Positions 11,873 through 28,769 of a stretch of DNA of 34,590 bases are shown one piece after another. The notes below the pieces were generated by a model that was given only the letters and a program-made list of their open reading frames with translations, searched no databases and was not told where the DNA came from. This DNA is from Bryobacteraceae bacterium (GTDB lineage Bacteria > Acidobacteriota > Terriglobia > Bryobacterales > Bryobacteraceae): positions 1 to 34,590 of the forward strand of contig JACZJQ010000282.1 in the NCBI GenBank assembly GCA_014860455.1, written 5' to 3'. Positions within the stretch are counted from its first letter, which is position 1. Each line of letters starts with the position of its first letter. A program made the translations under genes and the position numbers.

Positions 11873-14191
11873 GTGAGCAGGCCCAATCCCGCTTGGGACA
11901 AAGCAATCGTCGAGCGGCTGGAAGCGCAGCCCAAAGGCCGCGCCACGGCCCGCCATCTCATCAAGGAACTCCGCATCCGCGGCGAAGACCGCCAGCGCTT
12001 CGAGGACGCCCTCGACGTCCTCGCGCGCCGTGGCGCCCTCATCGAAATCCGCGGCCAATACGTCCTGCCCTCCCGCACCAGCGAATACGCTATCGGCCGC
12101 CTCACCATGCACCGCGACGGCTACGGCTTCGTCATCCCCACCGCCCCCGTCCCCGGCGTCAAGGGCGACATCTTCATCCCGCCCGACCCCTCCATGAGCG
12201 CCATGCACGGCGACCGCGTCCTCGCCCGCATCGCCCGCGTCCTGCCCGATGGCAAGGCCGAAGGCTCAATCGAGCGCATCCTCCGCCGCGCCCATCCCAC
12301 CGTCGTCGGCGAATTCAAAATCGGCCGCAAGTTCAACTACGTCATCCCGCAGGAATCGCGCATCCAGCACACCATCGTCATCCCCGATGGCCTCGAATTC
12401 CCCGGCGCCGCCGCCAACCCCGATCGCATCGGCGCTCCCCTGCCCAAGCTCCACTCCATCGAAGATCTCGACGGCCAGATCGTCAACGTCGAACTGCTCG
12501 ACTTTCCAGACCGCGGCGAAGACGCCGTTGGCCGCGTCGTCGAGATCCTCGGCCATCCGGACGACTTCGGCGTCGATGTCGAAATCACCATCCGCAAGCA
12601 CCACCTGCCCAACCGCTTCCCAGCCGAAGCCCTCGCCGAAGCCCAGGCCATCGCCGAAACCATCCCCGAATCCGAAATCGCCCGCCGCCGCGACTTCCGC
12701 CACCTCGATTGCGTCACCATCGACGGCGAAACCGCCCGCGACTTCGACGACGCCGTCTGGATCGACCGCACCCCCGATGGCAACTACATCCTCCACGTCC
12801 ACATCGCCGACGTCAGCCACTACGTCCGCCCCGGCTCGGCCATCGACAATGAAGCCCTCATCCGCGGCACCAGCGTCTACTTCCCCGACCGCGCCGTGCC
12901 CATGCTCCCGCTCGAACTCTCCACAGGCATCTGCTCGCTCCGTCCCCAGGTCGACCGCCTCGTCATGTCGGCCCTTCTCGAAATCGATCATCAGGGCCAG
13001 ATAGTCCGCCAGGATTTCTGCCGCGGCGTCATCCGCAGCGCCGAACGCATGACCTACACCGGCGTCTTCTCCATCCTCGAAGGCGACCCCGCCCTGCGCG
13101 CCCGCTACGCCCCGCTCGTCTCGCGCTTCGAACTCATGCGCGACCTCGCCCTCATCCTCCAGCGCAAGCGCAACAAACGCGGATCCATCGACTTCGACCT
13201 CCCCGAACCCTTCATCGTCTTCGACGAGAACGGCATGATGACCTCCATCGACCGCGCCCCCCGCAACATCGCCCATCGCCTCATCGAGGAGTTCATGCTC
13301 GCTGCCAACGAGGCCGTCAGCGCCCACCTCGAAGCCTCTCTGCCCCAATCCATCTTCCGCGTCCACGAAGTCCCCGACCCTCAAAAGGTGATGGACTTCG
13401 AAGACCTCGCCGCCCGCTTCGGCTACTCCCTCGGCTTCGGCGCCGTCCCCGTCAGACGCTTCCCCGTCGTCACCCGCACCTCCGACGGCCGCAAACTCCG
13501 CCGCGACATCGTCCGCGCCGACGAGCGCATGAAGGTCAGCTCGCGCATGTACCAGAAACTCGTCGCCAAACTCGAAGGCAAGCCCGAAGAACGCATCTTG
13601 AACTACCTCATGCTGCGCTCGCTCAAACAGGCCCGCTACTCCGCCGAAAACCTCGGCCACTTCGCCCTCGCCGCCACCAGCTATACCCACTTCACCTCGC
13701 CCATCCGCCGCTACCCCGATCTCATCGTCCACCGCCTGCTCGGCGCGCTGCTCGACCGCCAGCCGCCTGAAGTCGCCGACCTCGACGGCCTCGCCCGCAT
13801 GTGCTCTGAAACCGAGCGCCGCGCCGCCGAAGCCGAACGCGAACTCCTCGAATGGAAACGCGTCAAGTTCATGACCGACCGCATCGGCGACGAGTTCGAT
13901 TCGCTCGTCATCTCCACCACCCGCTTCGGATTCTTCGTCGAACTCAACGACCTCTTCGTCGAAGGACTCGTCCCCATCGACTCGCTGCCCGGCGAACGCT
14001 GGAACTATCTCGATAACACCCGCCGCATCACCGGCGAACGCACCCGCCGCGAAATCTCCATCGGCGACCAACTCCGCGTCCGCCTCGATCACATCGACGC
14101 CATGGAGAAGCGCATGGTCTTTTCGCTCGCCGGCCCCTGGGCCTGCGAATCCGGCCGCAAACGCCCTCAGGCCCGCTTCAAGCGCCGCTGA
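11873..14191 (+). CDS. rnr: Ribonuclease R (RNB-family 3'-5' exoribonuclease)
   Basis: Processive 3'-5' exoribonuclease for structured RNA and mRNA/rRNA turnover, 772 residues from GTG 11873. Domain order is an N-terminal winged helix (about 10-65), two cold-shock domains (about 70-230), the RNB catalytic domain from about 272, and a C-terminal S1 domain with basic tail. The RNB magnesium site is clear in DGETARDFDDAV, with D284, D290, D292 and D293. The block FTSPIRRYPDLIVHRLL is the usual RNB end. The frame extends to 11738, but the homologous protein starts at SRPNPAWDKAIVERL. The last 14 bases overlap the archaemetzincin gene on the other strand. Strong C-ending codon preference (GCC, CGC, CTC). 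Confidence 0.93.
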   Translation: MSRPNPAWDKAIVERLEAQPKGRATARHLIKELRIRGEDRQRFEDALDVLARRGALIEIRGQYVLPSRTSEYAIGRLTMHRDGYGFVIPTAPVPGVKGDIFIPPDPSMSAMHGDRVLARIARVLPDGKAEGSIERILRRAHPTVVGEFKIGRKFNYVIPQESRIQHTIVIPDGLEFPGAAANPDRIGAPLPKLHSIEDLDGQIVNVELLDFPDRGEDAVGRVVEILGHPDDFGVDVEITIRKHHLPNRFPAEALAEAQAIAETIPESEIARRRDFRHLDCVTIDGETARDFDDAVWIDRTPDGNYILHVHIADVSHYVRPGSAIDNEALIRGTSVYFPDRAVPMLPLELSTGICSLRPQVDRLVMSALLEIDHQGQIVRQDFCRGVIRSAERMTYTGVFSILEGDPALRARYAPLVSRFELMRDLALILQRKRNKRGSIDFDLPEPFIVFDENGMMTSIDRAPRNIAHRLIEEFMLAANEAVSAHLEASLPQSIFRVHEVPDPQKVMDFEDLAARFGYSLGFGAVPVRRFPVVTRTSDGRKLRRDIVRADERMKVSSRMYQKLVAKLEGKPEERILNYLMLRSLKQARYSAENLGHFALAATSYTHFTSPIRRYPDLIVHRLLGALLDRQPPEVADLDGLARMCSETERRAAEAERELLEWKRVKFMTDRIGDEFDSLVISTTRFGFFVELNDLFVEGLVPIDSLPGERWNYLDNTRRITGERTRREISIGDQLRVRLDHIDAMEKRMVFSLAGPWACESGRKRPQARFKRR

Positions 14192-14714
14192 GCGTCTTCC
14201 CGCACTGCGCGCAAAACTCGGCCCCCTTCAGGTCCAGCCGCTCCACCCTGTGCGACGAAACCATCACACACTGCCAGTCGTCGCAATGCCCCAACCCGCG
14301 CGTGTGGCCGATCTCATGCACCGCTTCTTTCAACAGCCGCACCCGCAACTTCTCCGCGTCCGCCGGCAGTCCGTAAAACTCCTCCCGCAGCCTCGCCACC
14401 GAAACCACAGCCGCCTTACCTGGGTACTGCGCCTCGCCGAACACAAACGTCAGCACCGGCACAAACAGGTCCGCCTCGGTCACGCCAAGCACGATGTCGC
14501 CTTCCGTGACCTCCACCTCCGCCAACTTCGCCAGGATCGCCGTCGAATACGTTTGCCCCCGGTACGTATCGAAGGCGAAGCCTGAATCGAATTCATCCAC
14601 ATGAACCCGGCACTGCATCTGCAACCGAGCCGCCAGATCCGCCGACAACCGGTCCAGCAGGTTCAGGTCGATATGCGGTGGCGAAACCGGCAGGATGTGG
14701 ATCGTCGCCGCCAC
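14178..14714 (-). CDS. Archaemetzincin-family zinc protease
   Basis: A 178-residue metzincin peptidase. The signature is complete: HEIGHTRGLGHCDDWQC (133-149) gives the three zinc His and the catalytic Glu, Met151 lies close behind, and C144, C149, C168 and C171 form the second, structural zinc site special to archaemetzincins. This matches family length. Substrates of the family are not established. The start is GTG 14714, only 13 nt after the stop of the sigma-54 regulator gene, so it looks like the last gene of the redox/regulator operon. Its 3' end overlaps rnr by 14 bp, tail to tail. Confidence 0.9.
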   Translation of the reverse strand: MAATIHILPVSPPHIDLNLLDRLSADLAARLQMQCRVHVDEFDSGFAFDTYRGQTYSTAILAKLAEVEVTEGDIVLGVTEADLFVPVLTFVFGEAQYPGKAAVVSVARLREEFYGLPADAEKLRVRLLKEAVHEIGHTRGLGHCDDWQCVMVSSHRVERLDLKGAEFCAQCGKTLSGA

Positions 14715-16077: not shown

Positions 16078-17744
16078 TGCGCTGTTCCTCCGCTGAAGTC
16101 GGCCGCCGAGGTCGCCAGATCCGCCGGCGCCTCCAACGGCAGTTGGATGATGAACTCCGCCCCTTTGCTCGCGTCGGGGTTCAATGTCAGCGATCCCCCG
16201 TGCCGGTCGATGATCGCTCTCGCCACCGCCAACCCCAACCCCGTCCCATGCTGATCTTCCTTCGTCGTGAAGAATGGCTCGAAGATCGCCTCCCGCAACC
16301 CCGCTGGCACTCCCGGACCGCTATCGGTCACCGTGATCTTCACGCCCTGCTCATCCGGCAGCGCCGCCGTCGTCACCTTCACCATCCCGCCTTCCCCTAT
16401 CGCTTCCGATGCGTTGGCCAGCAGCACCACCATCACCTGCTGGATCTGCGCCGGATCGGCCAGGATCACCGGCAACCCCGGATCCAACTCCTTAATCAAC
16501 TCGATCCTCGACAACTGCAACTTATGCAGCAGCAGCGCGCACGAGCGCTCCACAATCACATTCACTTCAGTCGGCGCCCGCTCCGGCGCCTTCTGCCGCG
16601 AAAACGCCAGCAGCGTCTTCATCAGGTCCCCACACCGCCGGCTCTCGCGCTCGATGATCCGCAAATGCTCCTTCACACGCTCTCGCCGCGCCTCGTCTCC
16701 CTCGAACTGGTCTAGGTCCTTCAAACACAGCCGCGCATACGTCAACATCCCGAACAGCGGATTGTTCACCTCATGCGCCACCGTCGCCGCCAGCCGCCCC
16801 AGCGACGCCATCTTTTCATTGGTAACCAATCCCCTGTGCGCCTTTTCCAACTCCGAAGACTTCTGCTGGACCCTCGCCTCCAACGTGTCGTTCCAGCGCC
16901 GCAGTTCTTCCTGCGCCGCGTTGATCTCGTGCGCCATCGCGTCAAATTCCGTCGCCAGCACTCCGAACTCGTCCTTGCTCCCCGCGTTCAGTCGGTGCTC
17001 TAGATCCCCGCCCTTCACCCTCTCAATCGCCCTTAGCAGCAGCCTCACCGGCTTGTGGACCACCCTGAAGACAAACATCACGCTCAACACACATGCCAGC
17101 AGCGCCGCCCCGGCAGTGAACGAAATCATTTGCAGCCTGTGCTCCTCGAGTTGCGCGTCCACCGCGTCCAGCGCCAGATGCGCGTCAATCACCCCCAATA
17201 TTCGCCGAGACTCAGGATGCGCATGACACGCCGCGTTGCTGCACTCCGGCGCGTTCTCGATCGGTCGGATCACCGCCAGGTTCCGCCGCCCCTGCTCGTC
17301 CCTGAAGATCCGGGCGCGGTCCTTGCGATGGAGCTTGGTTAGCGGCTTGGACGATGAATGGCAGGCATAGCAGGCCTCAGCGCTCTTGTCGATCAGCGTG
17401 CCTACCTCCGCGCCTAACGTCGAGTGCTGGATCAGCCCCTCTTCGTTCACGATTCTCACGCGCCGGATTCCAGGCTCCCGCCCGAAGTCCTGAATCAGCG
17501 TGTAGAGCGCACCCCGGTCATTATGCAGCATCGCCCGGTAGGCCGACGAGTGCACGACATCAGCCACCCGGTCGGCGCTTAAGCCCACCAACGTCTCCAG
17601 GTGCTTCTGCTCGAGGTCCAGCTGAAAGTAGCCGAAGAAAAGAAATCCTAGCAGGACCACAGAAACCAGGGATACCGCCAGCTTGACGGCAATGCCGAAT
17701 CGCGGTAGCGGGGTCGCCGAGGTCTTGTCCGGCATGGGGGTCAA
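16074..17744 (-). CDS. Membrane sensor histidine kinase with c-type heme motifs
   Basis: Sensor kinase of 556 residues. Helix 1 spans about 18-41 and helix 2 about 206-229; the periplasmic loop between them carries two heme-attachment motifs, CYACH (125-129, CX2CH) and CSNAACH (168-174, CX4CH). After helix 2 come a HAMP domain (to about 285), a coiled coil, a HisKA domain with phospho-acceptor H324 (LAATVAHEVNNPL) and an HATPase domain (NASEAIGEGG, DSGPGVP, TGLGLAVA). Heme c in the sensor loop points to sensing of redox state or a small gas. It sits between the HybB-like gene (4-bp overlap) and its regulator, so the signal is probably tied to that redox complex. The sensed signal is inference. 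Confidence 0.92.
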   Translation of the reverse strand: MTPMPDKTSATPLPRFGIAVKLAVSLVSVVLLGFLFFGYFQLDLEQKHLETLVGLSADRVADVVHSSAYRAMLHNDRGALYTLIQDFGREPGIRRVRIVNEEGLIQHSTLGAEVGTLIDKSAEACYACHSSSKPLTKLHRKDRARIFRDEQGRRNLAVIRPIENAPECSNAACHAHPESRRILGVIDAHLALDAVDAQLEEHRLQMISFTAGAALLACVLSVMFVFRVVHKPVRLLLRAIERVKGGDLEHRLNAGSKDEFGVLATEFDAMAHEINAAQEELRRWNDTLEARVQQKSSELEKAHRGLVTNEKMASLGRLAATVAHEVNNPLFGMLTYARLCLKDLDQFEGDEARRERVKEHLRIIERESRRCGDLMKTLLAFSRQKAPERAPTEVNVIVERSCALLLHKLQLSRIELIKELDPGLPVILADPAQIQQVMVVLLANASEAIGEGGMVKVTTAALPDEQGVKITVTDSGPGVPAGLREAIFEPFFTTKEDQHGTGLGLAVARAIIDRHGGSLTLNPDASKGAEFIIQLPLEAPADLATSAADFSGGTAQ

Positions 17745-18919
17745 TCCCCCGTTGCGTTCACCGACGCCAGTTCACCCCGGCTTCCGTTGGCCGCCGCCGG
17801 AACTTCGTGCTCGGCCGCCTCAAACACCGGCAGGTTCTTGGCCGCCAGCCTGAAGATCGCGAAACCGCCGGCGATGATCGAAAACGTCACCGCAACCTCG
17901 GTCCACTTCGGAATGTAGGTCACCCCCGATGACGCTTCCATCCCCGTCAGGCTGATGTTCAGCCGGTTGGTGACAAAGCCCAGCAGGAACATGACAACAG
18001 TGATGTACAGCCCAGTCGGGTTCTGCCTCGTCTTTTCGCGATACAGCAGCAGCGCCGGTACGATGAACAGCGCCATCTCCAGCATAAACAGCTTGCTCTC
18101 CCAGCCCGGCTGCTCCAGATACACCCAGGCGTGGCGCTGCGTCACGTCAAACAGTCGCATCACCACATACAGCGACAACACCACCGCCAGCATCCGGCTC
18201 AACTTCTGGATCAACGGCCACTCAAGCTGCCGTCCGAACGCCTTTGAACTGTGCCAAGATTCGAAAATCGTCATACCCAACCCGACGGCGATTGCCGAAA
18301 TGTAGAACAACAACGGCATCAGCGGACTGTACCAAAGCGGGTGCAACTTGCCCTTCATGATCAGGTACAAGCTGCCCAGCGAACTCTGGTGCAGCGTCGA
18401 CAAGATGACTCCTGCGATGATGATCAGCGGCATCACTCCCTTCAGGATCTTGTGAGCCTTGGTTAGCTTAAATCGCTCAAGCACCAGCGGAAAGAACTCG
18501 AGAAACAGCACCGTGGTGTACAGCGTCACGCACCAGCCCACCTCGAACATCACCGACCGCGGATTCCACATGATCAGCGGGTGCCAGATCCGCCACGGCC
18601 GCCCAAGGTCGAACATCAGCGCGACCACGACAAGCGAGTAGCCCAGAAACGCCGTCAGAATCGCCGGCCTCACTACGGGCTTGTACTCACGCAGGTTGAA
18701 GATATGCACAATCGCGGCCAGCGTGAATCCGCCCGCCGCGAGCCCCACCCCGCAAAGGATGTCGAAACCAATCCATATGCCCCACGGAAACTCGTCGCTC
18801 AAATTCGACGACCCCGCCAGCCCCTGCGTCACGCGGATATAGGTCGCCGCCAACCCAGACATCATGATCACCGCGAACACAACCCGCCAGAAAGTGATCT
18901 TGGGCATCGTCAGCTTCAT
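17741..18919 (-). CDS. HybB/NrfD-family quinone-reactive membrane subunit
   Basis: Polytopic membrane protein of 392 residues with about nine helices, in the NrfD/PsrC superfamily and closest to hydrogenase-2 HybB. The block NLSDEFPWGIWIGFDILCGVGLAAGGFT is the quinone-site segment of that family. Such proteins pass electrons between membrane quinone and an iron-sulfur subunit. The frame is open to 19051, but ATG 18919 starts the homologous part and shares one base with the stop of the HybA-like gene (TGATG). The C-terminal 25 residues are polar and cytoplasmic. It ends 4 bp inside the kinase gene. No Ni-Fe or molybdenum catalytic subunit lies nearby. Confidence 0.9.
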   Translation of the reverse strand: MKLTMPKITFWRVVFAVIMMSGLAATYIRVTQGLAGSSNLSDEFPWGIWIGFDILCGVGLAAGGFTLAAIVHIFNLREYKPVVRPAILTAFLGYSLVVVALMFDLGRPWRIWHPLIMWNPRSVMFEVGWCVTLYTTVLFLEFFPLVLERFKLTKAHKILKGVMPLIIIAGVILSTLHQSSLGSLYLIMKGKLHPLWYSPLMPLLFYISAIAVGLGMTIFESWHSSKAFGRQLEWPLIQKLSRMLAVVLSLYVVMRLFDVTQRHAWVYLEQPGWESKLFMLEMALFIVPALLLYREKTRQNPTGLYITVVMFLLGFVTNRLNISLTGMEASSGVTYIPKWTEVAVTFSIIAGGFAIFRLAAKNLPVFEAAEHEVPAAANGSRGELASVNATGD

Positions 18920-19674
18920 CACTTCACCCCCTCGCGGCCTTCGCCTTCGGCCCGCGCCACTTCTTCCTTGCGGTTGTTCAACCAGTAGATGCCCCCCATG
19001 AGCACCGAGCCCGATACAACGATGTTCGGGATGTGCTGCAACGCCGCCCACGTCGTCTGCGGCAGGTTCTCCTTTGGAATCGACTTGCTGAAACCAATCT
19101 GGTCGAACGGCACCGCCGACAGGATCAACACCGACGTGCCGCCCACCTCTTCTATCCCGTAGATCGCCGGATAGTAGCTGTCAGGGCTCTCCTTCATCCG
19201 CTCCCTCGCCTTGGCGATCAACTCATCACGGTCGCCCGTGATCGTCGCCTCGGTCGGGCAGATTTCGCTGCATCGGGTCGGCTCCTTCAGCCGGTCCGAA
19301 CACATGTCGCACTTGGCCACCTTCGGCTCAAGAATCTCGCTCCATGTATACGTGGGCACCTGAAACGGACACGCCGTCATGCAGTACCGGCATCCCATAC
19401 AACGGTCTTCCAGATAAACGACCGGCCCGGCCTCGGTCTTCTGAAGCGCCGCTACCGGGCAAACAGAAGCACAGGCCGGGTCGATGCAATGCATGCACAG
19501 CTTTCTCGAGAAGCGCTCACCGTGGGTGCGAACCGCGGTAATCTTGTGCGCCGAGGTCTTCTCTTCAGCCGCAATCTTCTCGGTGTAGGGGAGCTTCCAT
19601 CGCTCCGAACACGTTTCCTCACACTGACGGCAACCTACACAAAGTACGCTGTCATACAGTATCGCTCGCGCCAT
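18919..19674 (-). CDS. HybA-like 4x[4Fe-4S] ferredoxin subunit
   Basis: Electron-transfer subunit of 251 residues with sixteen Cys arranged for four cubane clusters: CVGCRQCEETC near the start, CMHCIDPACASVCP, CMGCRYCMTACP, and CDMCSDRLKEPTRCSEICP. The C-terminus has one membrane anchor (IPNIVVSGSVLMGGIYWL) and a charged tail. This is the HybA layout, but no N-terminal Tat signal is present, so the clusters probably face the cytoplasm, unlike classic HybA. It pairs with the HybB-like subunit downstream (one-base overlap). A strong GGAGG ribosome site is 5 nt before ATG 19674. It could carry electrons from a soluble donor to quinone; the donor is unknown. Confidence 0.9.
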   Translation of the reverse strand: MARAILYDSVLCVGCRQCEETCSERWKLPYTEKIAAEEKTSAHKITAVRTHGERFSRKLCMHCIDPACASVCPVAALQKTEAGPVVYLEDRCMGCRYCMTACPFQVPTYTWSEILEPKVAKCDMCSDRLKEPTRCSEICPTEATITGDRDELIAKARERMKESPDSYYPAIYGIEEVGGTSVLILSAVPFDQIGFSKSIPKENLPQTTWAALQHIPNIVVSGSVLMGGIYWLNNRKEEVARAEGEGREGVK

Positions 19675-19742
19675 TAGAACCTCCGGACTAGTTACAGTCT
19701 AGCCCGAACTGTAGGATTCTTACCAGACTAAAAGGTCTGAAG

Positions 19743-19759
19743 TGATGAATTTTTCATCA
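19743..19759. repeat. Perfect hairpin at the stop of the GcvH-like gene
   Basis: TGATGAA-TTT-TTCATCA is a 7-bp stem with a 3-nt loop, and the stop codon forms one end of the stem. It lies in the 82-nt gap before the HybA-like gene, which also holds a weaker dyad (CAGAC...GTCTG, 19724-19739). It lacks a clear U-tract, so it is more likely an mRNA stability or attenuation element than a terminator. Confidence 0.45.
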
Positions 19760-20419
19760 GCTGAGGAAGAACTCGCGTCCAGCCTCGCTCCAGGTCTTCG
19801 CGTCCATCGCCAGCGCGGGTTCCTTCACCGGCTCGCCGCCATCGGCTGCCGTCGCACCGGCCAGTTGCGACTGCATCGCGAAGAAGCGGTCCGCAGTCTC
19901 TCTCATCCAATTGGCCACCAGGCTCGTCGGCAGCAGGTTGCGGGCCGGGCTCTCGTCGTCGGGAGCAAACACAGTCATCAGCCAGCCTTCGCCGTAGGGA
20001 TCTTCGCGCAGCAGCGACGGCTTGTCGGCGATCTTCGCGTTGATCTCAACCACTTCGCCTTCCACCGGCGACACGATCTCAACCTTCTCGCCATTGCGGT
20101 GCAGCGTCACAACCTTCTGCCCTTGGCGCACCCACTGGCCGGCCTTTGGCAGTTCAATCTTGTCCACGCCCGCGCTGAAGGCCGCTGCGAATGCGTCCAT
20201 GCCCACACGGTTCACGTTCTTGCGCTCGCGCTCAAGCCACGTGTGGCCGGGGTGATAACGAAGGTGTCCGGGGATCGCATAGCCGCCAGCCACTTCAACG
20301 TCTGCCGCGATGGGTTCGGTTACGGGCTCCTGGGTGGCCACGGCGGCCTTGCCCCTGTTCATAACGAGGTCGGCGATGATGAATGCCGCGAAGGTGATGA
20401 TTACGAATAGGACGGTCAT
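19757..20419 (-). CDS. Membrane-anchored GcvH-like protein lacking the lipoyl lysine
   Basis: A 220-residue protein: an N-terminal membrane helix (2-20, TVLFVIITFAAFIIADLVM), a linker, a GcvH-like lipoyl-domain fold (about 45-153) and a C-terminal helical tail. Blocks shared with glycine-cleavage H protein are HPGHTWL, VDKIELPKAGQWV, SPVEGEVVEIN and EDPYGEGWLM. Between LP and PV both proteins have 26 residues, so they align without a gap; the position of the lipoyl lysine in E. coli GcvH (in ESVKA) falls on G110 here. It therefore cannot be lipoylated in the usual way. The frame is open to 20563, but a sigma-54 promoter lies at 20468-20483, so ATG 20419 is the true start. First gene of the redox operon. 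Confidence 0.82.
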   Translation of the reverse strand: MTVLFVIITFAAFIIADLVMNRGKAAVATQEPVTEPIAADVEVAGGYAIPGHLRYHPGHTWLERERKNVNRVGMDAFAAAFSAGVDKIELPKAGQWVRQGQKVVTLHRNGEKVEIVSPVEGEVVEINAKIADKPSLLREDPYGEGWLMTVFAPDDESPARNLLPTSLVANWMRETADRFFAMQSQLAGATAADGGEPVKEPALAMDAKTWSEAGREFFLS

Positions 20420-20467
20420 GTGAGGTTCTCTGCTTTCTGCAGGCTCTGTTGCCTGCACCCTCCTTAG

Positions 20468-20483
20468 TGCAACCGTCGTGCCA
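20468..20483 (-). promoter_or_regulatory. Sigma-54 (-24/-12) promoter
   Basis: On the minus strand the sequence is TGGCACG-ACGG-TTGCA, matching the sigma-54 consensus TGGCACG-N4-TTGC at every conserved base. The expected start of transcription is near 20457, about 38 nt before ATG 20419. A sigma-54 activator is encoded in the same gene run, which supports an autoregulated redox operon. Confidence 0.88.
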
Positions 20484-20524
20484 AACTCAGAAACGGGGAT
20501 AAGCTTCTTGGAATCAACAAGATC

Positions 20525-20546
20525 GAGAGAAATCAATTTTTCTCTC
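20525..20546. promoter_or_regulatory. Candidate upstream activator site
   Basis: Perfect inverted repeat GAGAGAAA-N6-TTTCTCTC (arms 20525-20532 and 20539-20546). Its centre is about 79 nt upstream of the predicted sigma-54 start. A dimeric Fis-type helix-turn-helix activator such as the one at 14728-16077 would be expected to bind dyads in such a place. The rest of 20547-20669 is AT-rich with weaker dyads (GAAA-A-TTTC, 20553-20561) and no gene. Confidence 0.5.
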
Positions 20547-20669
20547 AGTGTAGAAAATTTCAACGCTCACTGCCGAGGAGATCCACAAAATCACCGTATC
20601 ATGCTGAAACAATTGATAAAAATGGGATGTTGAAAAATCCAAGAGCAAGTGTCGAAGAAAACCGCAGGT

Positions 20670-26191: not shown

Positions 26192-27580
26192 TCAGCGGCC
26201 GGTTTGCCAGCGCAGAACGATGGAGCGCGTGAAGGTGGGCAGTTCGATGAAGCCGCTACGCACCCGCGCTTTGGTCCACTTGCCGGTCCAGGGATCGTAG
26301 GCGTCCACGTTGCCGAGCTTGCCGAGTTTGCCGGGTTCGAGACGGATGCGGCTCACCGGGTCGGGTGTCCGGTCCTGTTCGAGTTCGGTGCGCCAGTCGC
26401 TCGACGCGTCGCGAATCCAGGCCAGTGTCGTGCGCTTGCCCGCCAGCAGATAGACGCGCAGGCCCGGAGTCGCGAGGCGGCGCGGTTCGAACTGCTCGGC
26501 CGGAGGATCGATCTCCTTCACCGCTTCGGCGAAACGGTCGAAGTGCCACCAGAGATTGTTGGCGGCGACATAGGAATCCCAGTGCCAGATCTGCCCGGGG
26601 CCGGCAGCGCCCGCGAAGAACGGCGCGAACAGCACGTCGTGCAGGATGATGCCCTGCTTGTCGGCCTTGTAGAGCTTGAACGGGCCGGTATGCTTCGGCT
26701 CGACAGCGCCGGATTCGGCCAGCAGCACGGGCCGTCTGGGCTGGTAGCTGAGCAGTTCGGTGACGGCATCGGCGGCCAGGATGTCGACGGGTCCTCTGCA
26801 GACCTCCAGTTGCGCGCCGAGATCCAGGTAGCGGTGGACCTGGGCGAGGTCGTTGCCGGGCATGAGGGAGTGCTTGCGGTAGGTTGTGGTAACGCGCTGG
26901 GTGTCGAAACTGCCGAGGCTTTGCATGACCAGATTGTTCGGAAAGGCCGCGTCGAGCACCGGCAGCATGGCTTCGGTCCAGGCCAGATAGTCGCCGCCTT
27001 GCACGGCGTTAATCTCGTTCCAGAACTCCCAGCCGAACACTTCGGGGCGGTCGCCGAAACGGCGCTTGAGCCAGGCGATTTTTTCGCGGAAGCGGGCGCG
27101 GGAGGGTTCGCCGTCAAAGAAGTCGGCGATGGAGCGCGCCGTGCCGCCGTTGTCGATGTGATGGAGCGGCTTGTCGGCCCAGGATTGCCGCCCGCCACCG
27201 ATGGAGCGGAAGTGTTCGATGGTGAGCTTTACCTTGATTTTGCGGGCGGCGCACATTTCCAGGGCGCGTTCGATGAGGAGGGCTTTGGCTTCGTCATAGA
27301 CGCCTGAGCTGGCGTGTTCGACATCCCAGAAGGGGTTCGCCATCCAGAAGCGGACGTAGTTGCCGCGGTTGGTTGAGAGCGCGTCCAGCCAGTGCTCGTA
27401 GAGCTTCATCGACTCTTCGGGGGTGGCGGCGCGCGGCGGCGCGATCAGGTTCAAGCCGATGGGGATGTATGGCTTACCGGAAGAGAGTTCCAAATACAGT
27501 GGATCTCTTGGGCTGACGCGAACGTACTCCTGGGTGAAGGCGTTTGCGGACAACAGCAAGGCAAGCGACAGAAGGCGCAT
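26192..27580 (-). CDS. Clan GH-A (GH5-like) glycoside hydrolase, secreted
   Basis: A 462-residue secreted TIM-barrel glycosidase. The signal peptide is MRLLSLALLLSANAFT. The barrel shows the two catalytic Glu of clan GH-A: E189 in GWEFWNEINA (acid/base, after strand 4) and E289 in PVLLAESGAVEP (nucleophile, after strand 7). Substrate-face blocks include GNYVRFWMANPFWDVEHA and IWHWDSYVAANNLWWHFDRF. A C-terminal part (about 380-462) looks like a small beta-domain. The frame is open to 27712, but the signal peptide starts at ATG 27580; TACAAT lies upstream at 27602-27607. The substrate (mannan, glucan or other) is not clear, and no other polysaccharide gene is adjacent. Confidence 0.78.
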   Translation of the reverse strand: MRLLSLALLLSANAFTQEYVRVSPRDPLYLELSSGKPYIPIGLNLIAPPRAATPEESMKLYEHWLDALSTNRGNYVRFWMANPFWDVEHASSGVYDEAKALLIERALEMCAARKIKVKLTIEHFRSIGGGRQSWADKPLHHIDNGGTARSIADFFDGEPSRARFREKIAWLKRRFGDRPEVFGWEFWNEINAVQGGDYLAWTEAMLPVLDAAFPNNLVMQSLGSFDTQRVTTTYRKHSLMPGNDLAQVHRYLDLGAQLEVCRGPVDILAADAVTELLSYQPRRPVLLAESGAVEPKHTGPFKLYKADKQGIILHDVLFAPFFAGAAGPGQIWHWDSYVAANNLWWHFDRFAEAVKEIDPPAEQFEPRRLATPGLRVYLLAGKRTTLAWIRDASSDWRTELEQDRTPDPVSRIRLEPGKLGKLGNVDAYDPWTGKWTKARVRSGFIELPTFTRSIVLRWQTGR

Positions 27581-27690
27581 ATGGAATGGACCCCGCAGGA
27601 GATTGTATCTGAGTTGGGCTGAGGGAGCCAGAACCTGGGTTGCGATGCCGGCTGCGCGACTCCGCAATGCCCGCCGGCATGGAGGTTGAA

Positions 27691-27777
27691 ATGGATGCAA
27701 AGAGGCTTGCACTGGTGCTGACAGCCGCGATTCTGGCCGCCGGCATCGCGATGTTCGTCATCGTCTCGAAGCAATAG
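27691..27777 (+). CDS. 28-residue one-helix microprotein A
   Basis: ATG 27691 encodes 28 residues starting MDAKRLALVL and ending VIVSKQ, nearly all one membrane helix with K/R at the N-side. A perfect GGAGG lies 5 nt upstream (27681-27685), as good as any ribosome site in the window. It has no recognised family; small subunits such as KdpF and CydX have similar size, but no motif matches. It is in the gap between the GH-A gene and the SDR gene and 57 nt before a second frame of equal length. Confidence 0.5.
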   Translation: MDAKRLALVLTAAILAAGIAMFVIVSKQ

Positions 27778-27834
27778 CACGGCGAACCCATGGCTAGGGC
27801 AGGCAGGGGCCTGGACTGGGTCTGGAGGATTTCT

Positions 27835-27921
27835 ATGGACACCTGGACAATCACGATGGCGGCGGTGGCGGTGACGTTGATCGCACTGATGGCGTTTATG
27901 CTGCTGCGTGGCCGGCGTTAG
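27835..27921 (+). CDS. 28-residue one-helix microprotein B
   Basis: ATG 27835 encodes 28 residues starting MDTWTITMAA and ending MLLRGRR: a single membrane helix followed by a basic end, which would place the C-terminus in the cytoplasm. GGAGG lies 6 nt upstream (27824-27828). An in-frame ATG at 27790 would give 43 residues but has no ribosome site. Length equals microprotein A and both begin MD, although the sequences are otherwise different. Probably co-transcribed with A. No known family recognised. Confidence 0.52.
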   Translation: MDTWTITMAAVAVTLIALMAFMLLRGRR

Positions 27922-27968
27922 GCGGTGGGCGGGGGATGGACGGCAAACGGATTTTAGCCGTGAGGGGT

Positions 27969-28769
27969 CTAAGCGGGCGGTTCGAAGGGCCACATTTCGC
28001 CGGCCATGAAGCCTCCGTCGACGGCGATGACCTGGCCGGTGATGTAGTTTGCGCCTTCAGAGGCGAGGAAGACGGCGAGCGGGCCGACGTCTTCGGGCGT
28101 GCCCATTTTCGGGTTGGCCTGGACGCCCTGGAGCCAGTTGAGCATTACTTCGGATTGCCACATCTGGCGGTTGAGGTCAGTGAGGATGAAGCCGGGAGCG
28201 ATGCAGTTGACCTGGATGTTGTACCTGGCCCACTCGAAGGCGGTTGAGCGGGTGAGGCCGGCGAGGGCGGATTTGGTCATGGTGTAGACGGAGGAGTAGG
28301 GGAGTCCAATGAAGGAGGCGAGGCTGCCGATGTGGATGACCTTGCCGCCGGAGGCTTCGCCAGACTGGACGCGGGCGATCATGCGGCGGGCGACGAGCTG
28401 GGTGAATTCGAAGACGCCATCGAGGTTGGTGGACATGACGCGGCGGTATTCGTCGGGGGTGTAGTCTTCCATGCGCTTGCGGTTGTTGATGCCGGCGACG
28501 TTGACCAGGATATCGGGGCAGGGAACCGAGGCGGCGAGAGTGGCGCGGGATTGAGAATCGGCGATGTCGAGCGAGCAGGCTTCGGCGGCGAGGCCCTGGG
28601 CGCGGAGATCAGCGGCGGCGCCTTGCAGTGCGTCGAGCGAGCGGGCGGCGAGTAGGGTGCGGGCTCCGGCGCGGGCGATGGCGCGGGCGATGGCGAGACC
28701 GATGCCGCGGCTGGCGCCGGCGACAAGGGCGGTTTTTCCGTCGAGCGAGAAGGGGTTGCCGGGAGTCAT
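27969..28769 (-). CDS. Short-chain dehydrogenase/reductase (gluconate 5-dehydrogenase/KduD-like)
   Basis: Classical SDR of 266 residues. The cofactor motif GASRGIG is at 18-24, NVAG at 90-93, and the catalytic set S149, Y162, K166 (YTMTK) is complete. The end block NQVNC/IAPGFILTDLNR...ITGQVIAVDGGF is typical of sugar-acid SDRs such as gluconate 5-dehydrogenase and the pectin-pathway enzyme KduD. Substrate is not certain. ATG 28769 lies 7 nt after a TAGCCT box that overlaps the -10 box of the divergent tartrate dehydrogenase gene, so both are probably switched together. Confidence 0.85.
   Translation of the reverse strand: MTPGNPFSLDGKTALVAGASRGIGLAIARAIARAGARTLLAARSLDALQGAAADLRAQGLAAEACSLDIADSQSRATLAASVPCPDILVNVAGINNRKRMEDYTPDEYRRVMSTNLDGVFEFTQLVARRMIARVQSGEASGGKVIHIGSLASFIGLPYSSVYTMTKSALAGLTRSTAFEWARYNIQVNCIAPGFILTDLNRQMWQSEVMLNWLQGVQANPKMGTPEDVGPLAVFLASEGANYITGQVIAVDGGFMAGEMWPFEPPA

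What the first reader, a model, noticed from the sequence alone, without database searches (positions are those of the whole stretch)
27691..27921. Tandem pair of 28-residue single-helix microproteins
Two frames of exactly 28 codons, each starting MD, each with a perfect GGAGG 5-6 nt upstream and each almost entirely one membrane helix. They match no family I know. Two independent strong ribosome sites make chance unlikely. They may be small subunits or regulators of a membrane complex.
Basis: seen in the sequence. Interest (0 to 1): 0.65.

Follow-up and report, generated by a model that had tools for sequence, protein, structure and literature searches.

The report
Two tiny conserved membrane-helix genes
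An acidobacterium carries two side-by-side genes for 28-residue membrane peptides, and a related species has kept both with their ribosome sites, so they are probably real small proteins of a kind already known to be common.

Summary
Two 28-codon frames (27691-27777, 27835-27921, + strand), each starting M-D with GGAGG 5 or 6 nt upstream and each essentially one hydrophobic helix, lie between two - strand genes. 60 Markov-simulated windows gave none. Peptide 2 keeps 23 of 28 residues. Peptide 1 keeps 16 of 28 and the position of all 9 Gly/Ala/Ser residues (exactly matched by 99 of 144,111 stop-free neutral simulations; a test chosen after seeing the alignment). The adjacent glycosidase-like gene is broken in G003, so the pair is probably not tied to it. 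The two other genomes held for the genus lack the pair there. No family model is matched above its cut-off. Best reading: a two-gene unit of single-helix membrane microproteins that pack against each other or an unknown membrane partner. That they are genes is fairly well supported; expression is untested and function is inferred. New member of a known kind.

The parts
27584..27620 (.). Conserved leader block shared by the divergent glycosidase-like gene (- strand) and the microprotein pair (+ strand); possible control region
   Evidence: 36 of 37 bases identical to G003, against 29 of 53 in the next stretch, although the glycosidase-like gene is broken in G003; its first 21 codons are also well kept there (58 of 64 bases). 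No sigma-70-like promoter was found by the scan, so the role is inferred.
27681..27685 (+). GGAGG ribosome site of microprotein 1
   Evidence: sequence, spacing 5; GGAGG also present in G003
27691..27777 (+). Microprotein 1, 28 aa, single hydrophobic helix rich in small residues
   Evidence: 16 of 28 residues and all 9 Gly/Ala/Ser positions kept in G003
27824..27828 (+). GGAGG ribosome site of microprotein 2
   Evidence: sequence, spacing 6; GGAGG also present in G003
27835..27921 (+). Microprotein 2, 28 aa, single hydrophobic helix ending in RGRR
   Evidence: 23 of 28 residues kept in G003; DNA 77 of 87 identical, against 24 of 42 in the gap before it
26192..27583 (-). Neighbour: secreted glycosidase-like gene, divergent; not part of the unit
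   Evidence: no Pfam hit, so the name is by eye and recalled; 19 of 150 family genomes, the window's own included, match at E 1e-40 or better, G003 not among them; frame breaks in G003
27969..28769 (-). Neighbour: short-chain dehydrogenase, convergent with the pair
   Evidence: PF13561 / PF00106; 91% identical in G003

Best explanation
The stretch is a small two-gene unit. SHOWN from sequence: two 28-codon frames, each with its own strong ribosome site, conserved in order in one related species. INFERRED: one short mRNA, started in or just after the conserved leader block, is translated separately for each peptide. Each peptide is so short that it probably inserts after release as a single-span inner-membrane helix, as shown for the 27-residue E. 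coli YohP. Microprotein 2 should sit with its RGRR end in the cytoplasm (positive-inside rule, recalled). Microprotein 1 presents a conserved small-residue face and packs against another helix: microprotein 2, itself, or a larger membrane protein encoded elsewhere. In this way the pair acts as auxiliary helices that stabilise or tune a membrane protein, as KdpF, CydX and AcrZ do.
For: Both frames, order, length, starts (ATG/ATG here, GTG/ATG in G003) and GGAGG sites are kept in G003. No gaps inside either frame, but 2, 4 and 11 gap columns in the non-coding stretches before, between and after them. DNA identity: frame 1 60/87, frame 2 77/87, against 29/53, 24/42 and 24/36 in those stretches. 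Neutral simulation of frame 1 with the observed 27 changes, 100,000 runs: as good a substitution score in 0.3%, hydropathy within 0.1 of the G003 value or higher in 1.1%, both together with start, stop and open frame in 1 run. Of 144,111 stop-free runs, 1,245 keep all nine Gly/Ala/Ser positions and 99 keep exactly that set; of 20,730 runs with no more residue changes than observed, 438 (2.1%) keep all nine. Relative to its self-score the true frame scores best of six in both genes, narrowly (0.61 against 0.56; 0.83 against 0.80). In-frame sequence upstream of each start is not conserved, and has a stop in G003 for frame 1, which supports the GGAGG-linked starts. The pair stays although the adjacent glycosidase-like gene is broken in G003. 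YohP: 27 aa, post-translational SRP route, C-in/N-out (passages of PMC7549839). CydX tolerates extensive change in its helix (passages of PMC6005532), as microprotein 1 seems to.
Against: No expression data. Two genomes carry it, so selection rests on a single pairwise comparison. For frame 2 the simulation is weak (score 9.3%, joint 2.1%). The frame preference is slight, and by absolute score other frames reach or exceed the true one in both genes. The broken glycosidase-like gene is itself still well kept at its start in G003 (58 of 64 bases), so DNA similarity alone is no proof of use. dN/dS is about 0.45 for frame 1 and 0.5 for frame 2, looser than the dehydrogenase (about 0.2). No partner gene is linked to the pair. 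Small-residue motifs do not by themselves prove helix pairing (abstract of PMC8307134), and the small-residue test was chosen after seeing the alignment. The scan found no promoter.
Confidence: 0.5

Rival explanations
1. Young, lineage-specific proto-genes: both peptides are translated and inserted into the membrane, but have only a slight or dispensable effect; selection mainly keeps them harmless and hydrophobic.
For: Convincing matches in two genomes of one genus only; G001 (84% complete) and G002 of the same genus lack the pair at the syntenic place. dN/dS about 0.45-0.5. Such genus-restricted hydrophobic intergenic microproteins are common: 67,297 clusters in Enterobacteriaceae, about 88% of clusters at 50% identity genus-specific (passages of PMC11188072).
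Against: Two strong ribosome sites kept in both species, identical length, and small-residue positions kept beyond what hydrophobicity alone needs (302 of 35,455 helix-keeping simulations keep all nine).
Confidence: 0.27
2. Membrane-active toxins of a type I toxin-antitoxin kind (TisB, DinQ, ZorO/ZorP-like): when derepressed, the peptides depolarise the membrane; an antisense RNA holds them down.
For: Size and single-helix build resemble 29-aa TisB (start of abstract of PMC11449926 in the listing) and DinQ, a toxic single-transmembrane peptide (start of abstract of PMC3567139 in the listing); a duplicated type I locus exists (zorO/zorP, start of abstract of PMC3919570 in the listing).
Against: No family match above cut-off; no Rfam hit in the window; six stretches around the starts and the end in both species fold about as well as shuffles (z -0.37 to 1.55), and the ribosome sites are only partly paired; one match per peptide in the window genome; no charged residues inside the helices; no promoter-like site on either strand at 27500-28050 (a weak test).
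Confidence: 0.1
3. Chance frames, or a stretch conserved for an RNA or promoter function only.
For: The leader block is the best conserved stretch (36 of 37); frame 2 DNA is no more conserved than the neighbouring gene (77/87 against 722/801), and its antisense frames score almost as well.
Against: No such frame in 60 simulated windows; the frame-1 substitution pattern is improbable under neutrality; RNA folds are not stronger than shuffles; no Rfam hit.
Confidence: 0.08
4. One two-helix protein split by a readthrough stop, or remains of a longer membrane or surface protein.
For: In the window the two frames are in phase with a single TAG between them; weak NCBIfam similarity of peptide 2 to surface-anchor and sorting-signal models.
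Against: In G003 the two starts are 148 nt apart, so the frames are out of phase; the linker is not conserved; the NCBIfam hits are below the curated cut-offs.
Confidence: 0.03

Closest known systems
YohP (27-aa single-span membrane peptide of E. coli)
   Same: Near-identical size, essentially one helix; microprotein 2 has the basic C-terminus expected of the same C-in orientation
   Different: No sequence relation tested; YohP was described as a single peptide in the passages seen, here there are two in tandem
KdpF / CydX / AcrZ kind of auxiliary membrane helices
   Same: One short hydrophobic helix; sequence-tolerant in the case of CydX
   Different: KdpF and CydX genes lie beside those of their complex (recalled); this pair lies beside no membrane complex and matches no Pfam model
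Type I toxins (TisB, DinQ, ZorO/ZorP)
   Same: Very short (TisB 29 aa), single hydrophobic helix, sometimes duplicated (listings)
   Different: No antisense RNA or strongly structured leader seen here; no charged residue within the helix
Intergenic hydrophobic microproteins of the 'cryptic bacterial microproteome' (PMC11188072)
   Same: 15-70 codons, intergenic, hydrophobic, largely genus-restricted, under purifying selection
   Different: That set is from Enterobacteriaceae; this is a tandem pair in Acidobacteriota with strong ribosome sites

Membership tests
KdpF / CydX or another small subunit family in Pfam or NCBIfam | Match to the curated family model | tested here: not met
   Pfam: no hit up to E 5 for all four peptides; NCBIfam: only hits under cut-off to surface-anchor or sorting models. 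Models this short have little power.
KdpF / CydX small subunits | Gene next to the large subunits of the complex (recalled) | tested here: not met
   Neighbours are a glycosidase-like gene without Pfam hit and a short-chain dehydrogenase, with a PF00180 dehydrogenase beyond
Type I toxin-antitoxin | Antisense or trans RNA repressing the toxin mRNA; structured toxin mRNA | tested here: inconclusive
   No Rfam hit, no promoter-like site, ordinary folding energies; an unknown antisense RNA cannot be excluded
Type I toxin-antitoxin | Toxicity when overproduced | not testable with these tools
   needs an expression test
Single-span small membrane proteins (under 50 aa) | Short frame with ribosome site, one hydrophobic helix, conserved between species | tested here: met
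   one relative only
Single-span small membrane proteins (under 50 aa) | Translated and located in the membrane | not testable with these tools
   no ribosome profiling or proteomics data available here

The most novel reading that the evidence does not exclude
The two peptides are an obligate pair: two separately made 28-residue helices of different sequence that assemble only with each other, through microprotein 1's conserved small-residue face, into a minimal two-subunit membrane assembly (a pore, sensor or regulator) that arose within one genus of Acidobacteriota.
Probability: 0.1. Interest if true: 0.7.

Novelty: new member of a known kind. Interest (0 to 1): 0.36.

Why it matters
Frames under about 30 codons are generally missed by gene annotation (recalled). 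A tandem pair with independent strong ribosome sites and a second species for comparison is a clean example of such missed genes, and a natural case for asking whether two tiny helices can have a joint function. If the pair proves to bind only itself, it would be a very small two-subunit membrane assembly. As it stands it adds one good candidate to a class already known to be large (passages of PMC11188072).

Tried and rejected
Distant relatives: profile searches of 257 genomes of the order with each peptide and of 396 genomes of the phylum with peptide 2 gave convincing matches in the window genome and G003 only; the models were built from those two, so these match by construction, and G003 was evidently not in the phylum draw. 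The other rows had E 0.0015 or worse, in frames of 63 aa or more, most of them several hundred aa. Two of the short frames for peptide 1 were looked at: G190 lies antisense inside a 618-aa frame; G120 lies in a 53-aa frame that I judged unrelated by eye. The other frames of 93 to 136 aa were not examined. Peptide 1 was not searched in the phylum, nor in phages or plasmids.

The search for related loci with peptide 2 in genome contigs and viral contigs found nothing. These negatives are worthless: the G003 contig PNKE01000055.1 is in genome contigs, carries the peptide, and was not reported.

The DNA hits in G002 and G009 were rejected: the 35-base G002 hit lies in a 775-aa frame (LptF/LptG-like, recalled); the 29-base G009 hit corresponds to window 27630-27658, outside both frames.

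Readthrough fusion: in phase here but out of phase in G003. An AlphaFold model of the read-through chain, without alignment, gave two helices with low overall confidence (pLDDT 76.5, pTM 0.43) and says nothing reliable on packing. A model of the 45-aa upstream-extended frame 1 gave one helix over residues 14-44 (pLDDT 76.9). Are the two peptides copies of each other? Ungapped similarity has shuffle p 0.026 here and 0.005 in G003, with shared M-D and similar composition helping; left open, not claimed. The first alignment was made on the wrong strand and replaced. One search was translated one base out of frame and replaced.

Full report
What is there. On the + strand at 27691-27777 and 27835-27921 lie two 28-codon frames, MDAKRLALVLTAAILAAGIAMFVIVSKQ and MDTWTITMAAVAVTLIALMAFMLLRGRR, with GGAGG 5 and 6 nt before their ATG codons. 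They take up 174 of the 385 bp between two - strand genes: a secreted glycosidase-like gene (26192-27583; no Pfam hit, named by eye) that runs away from them, and a short-chain dehydrogenase (27969-28769; PF13561) that runs towards them. By this layout they are not the tail of another + strand operon and would need their own transcript.

More than chance. The strict pattern did not appear in 60 order-2 Markov simulations of the window. A similar cut-off was met once in 447,843 bases of other loci (105 of the 118 loci held at that time, some overlapping).

Conservation. A DNA search of 41 genomes (the window's own and 40 relatives) matched nearly the whole 501-base query once more, in genome G003 of the same genus at 75% identity; two further genomes had short matches that were rejected. 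The G003 contig has the same length as PNKE01000055.1, Candidatus Solibacter sp. PR.3.38, and a 3,000-base stretch was checked to be identical. Both frames are there, in order, 28 codons each, with GGAGG and starts GTG and ATG. Peptide 2 is 23 of 28 identical, peptide 1 is 16 of 28. Counting the stop codon, the DNA is 77/87 and 60/87 identical without gaps, while the non-coding stretches before, between and after are 29/53, 24/42 and 24/36 with gap columns.

Is it selection on the peptide? For frame 1, with the observed number of changes dealt out at random, as good a substitution score was reached in 0.3% of 100,000 runs, hydropathy within 0.1 of the G003 value or higher in 1.1%, and both together with start, stop and open frame in one run. 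All nine Gly/Ala/Ser positions (3, 7, 12, 13, 16, 17, 18, 20, 26) are the same in both species. Of 200,000 runs, 144,111 had no stop; 1,245 of these kept all nine and 99 kept exactly that set. Among 35,455 runs that also kept a strong helix the figures were 302 and 29. Among 20,730 runs with no more residue changes than observed, 438 (2.1%) kept all nine, the least favourable of these comparisons. This test was chosen after seeing the alignment. For frame 2 there are too few changes for a strong test (score 9.3%, joint 2.1%). Frame preference is slight in both genes when scored against self, and absent by absolute score. dN/dS is about 0.45 and 0.5 for the two frames and about 0.2 for the dehydrogenase, so constraint is present but looser.

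Range. Protein searches of 150 family genomes gave 10 matching genomes for peptide 2 and 11 for peptide 1 at E up to 1. In each case the window genome and G003 stood apart (G003 at 7.9e-9 and 5.2e-4); the rest had E 0.19 or worse and lay in frames of 136 aa or more. Profile searches of 257 genomes of the order gave 15 and 26 genomes at E up to 0.05, again with those two convincing, by construction of the models. A profile search of 396 genomes of the phylum for peptide 2 gave 2 at E up to 0.01: the window genome and one chance row in a 1,512-aa frame. In G001 (84% complete) and G002, the other two genomes held for this genus, the dehydrogenase and its PF00180 neighbour are syntenic, but a heavy-metal-binding-domain protein (PF19335 in G001; a similar frame by eye in G002) stands where the microproteins are here. 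The pair thus looks restricted to one branch of the genus. The search for related loci negatives are not evidence, because that search missed its own positive control.

Independence from the neighbour. G003 has no match to the glycosidase-like protein at E 1e-40. The beginning of the gene is still recognisable there but runs across frame breaks, and about 650 bases on stand a HigB-like toxin and a helix-turn-helix gene. The microproteins are intact beside it. The 37-bp leader between them and the broken gene is 36/37 identical, which suggests, without proving, that it serves the microproteins; but the broken gene's first 21 codons are also well kept (58/64), so the break may simply be recent. 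No sigma-70-like site was recognised there.

How it most likely works. Shown: two independently startable, conserved hydrophobic frames. Inferred: two single-span membrane peptides made from one message and inserted after release, as shown experimentally for the 27-residue YohP, which sits C-in (passages of PMC7549839). Peptide 2, with RGRR at its end and Asp as the only charge at its start, should be C-in by the positive-inside rule (recalled). Peptide 1 has a conserved small-residue pattern, often taken as a sign of helix packing, although such motifs do not prove it (abstract of PMC8307134). I read the pair as auxiliary helices of a membrane protein, or of each other, in the manner of KdpF, CydX or AcrZ. 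Sequence tolerance in the helix is documented for CydX (passages of PMC6005532).

What it is not, as far as tested. It matches no Pfam, PHROGs or PADLOC model at the limits used, and NCBIfam gave only hits below cut-off. It is not a readthrough fusion: the two frames are in phase here but 148 nt apart, out of phase, in G003. It is not an obvious type I toxin: ordinary folding, no Rfam hit, one match per peptide in its genome and no charge within the helix. Toxicity itself could not be tested.

Novelty. A large survey has shown that intergenic, hydrophobic, genus-restricted microproteins are abundant: 67,297 clusters under purifying selection in Enterobacteriaceae, about 88% of clusters at 50% identity genus-specific (passages of PMC11188072). 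A paper search for at least two of Solibacter, small proteins, transmembrane and microproteins found 3,124 papers, of which six were listed; one for at least three of Acidobacteria, small proteins, smORF and transmembrane found 61, of which 12 were listed. No title or abstract start in these listings concerns such a pair in Acidobacteriota; the unlisted papers were not seen, so nothing is claimed about absence from print. This is a new member of a known kind, interesting mainly for being a clean tandem pair.

Noticed in passing
L005 3740-4366 (G003:C24): Beyond the broken glycosidase-like gene in G003 stand a HigB-like toxin (PF05015) and a helix-turn-helix gene (PF01381), a likely type II toxin-antitoxin pair.
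   Followed up: partly
window 17741-20563: An NrfD-type membrane protein (PF03916), a 4Fe-4S ferredoxin-like protein (PF13247) and a glycine-cleavage-H-like protein (PF01597) with, by eye, a membrane helix near its start lie together, beside what look by eye like a sensor kinase and an NtrC-like regulator; an unusual combination.
   Followed up: partly
window 27584-27620: A 37-bp leader block is nearly invariant between the two species although the gene it precedes on the - strand is broken in one of them.
   Followed up: partly
L114 8187-8267 (- strand): A 26-codon hydrophobic frame, MILLLVDLLLLGSVTIIIVWRRKGRR, with a GGAGG site in another Bryobacterales genome, about 115 bases upstream of a 578-aa frame on the same strand; a similar kind of tiny membrane gene.
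   Followed up: no
window 14178-14714 (- strand): An archaemetzincin-like protease (PF07998, peptidase family M54).
   Followed up: no
Genome contigs: the search for related loci missed a short hydrophobic query: it did not report PNKE01000055.1, which the collection holds and which encodes the peptide.
   Followed up: yes
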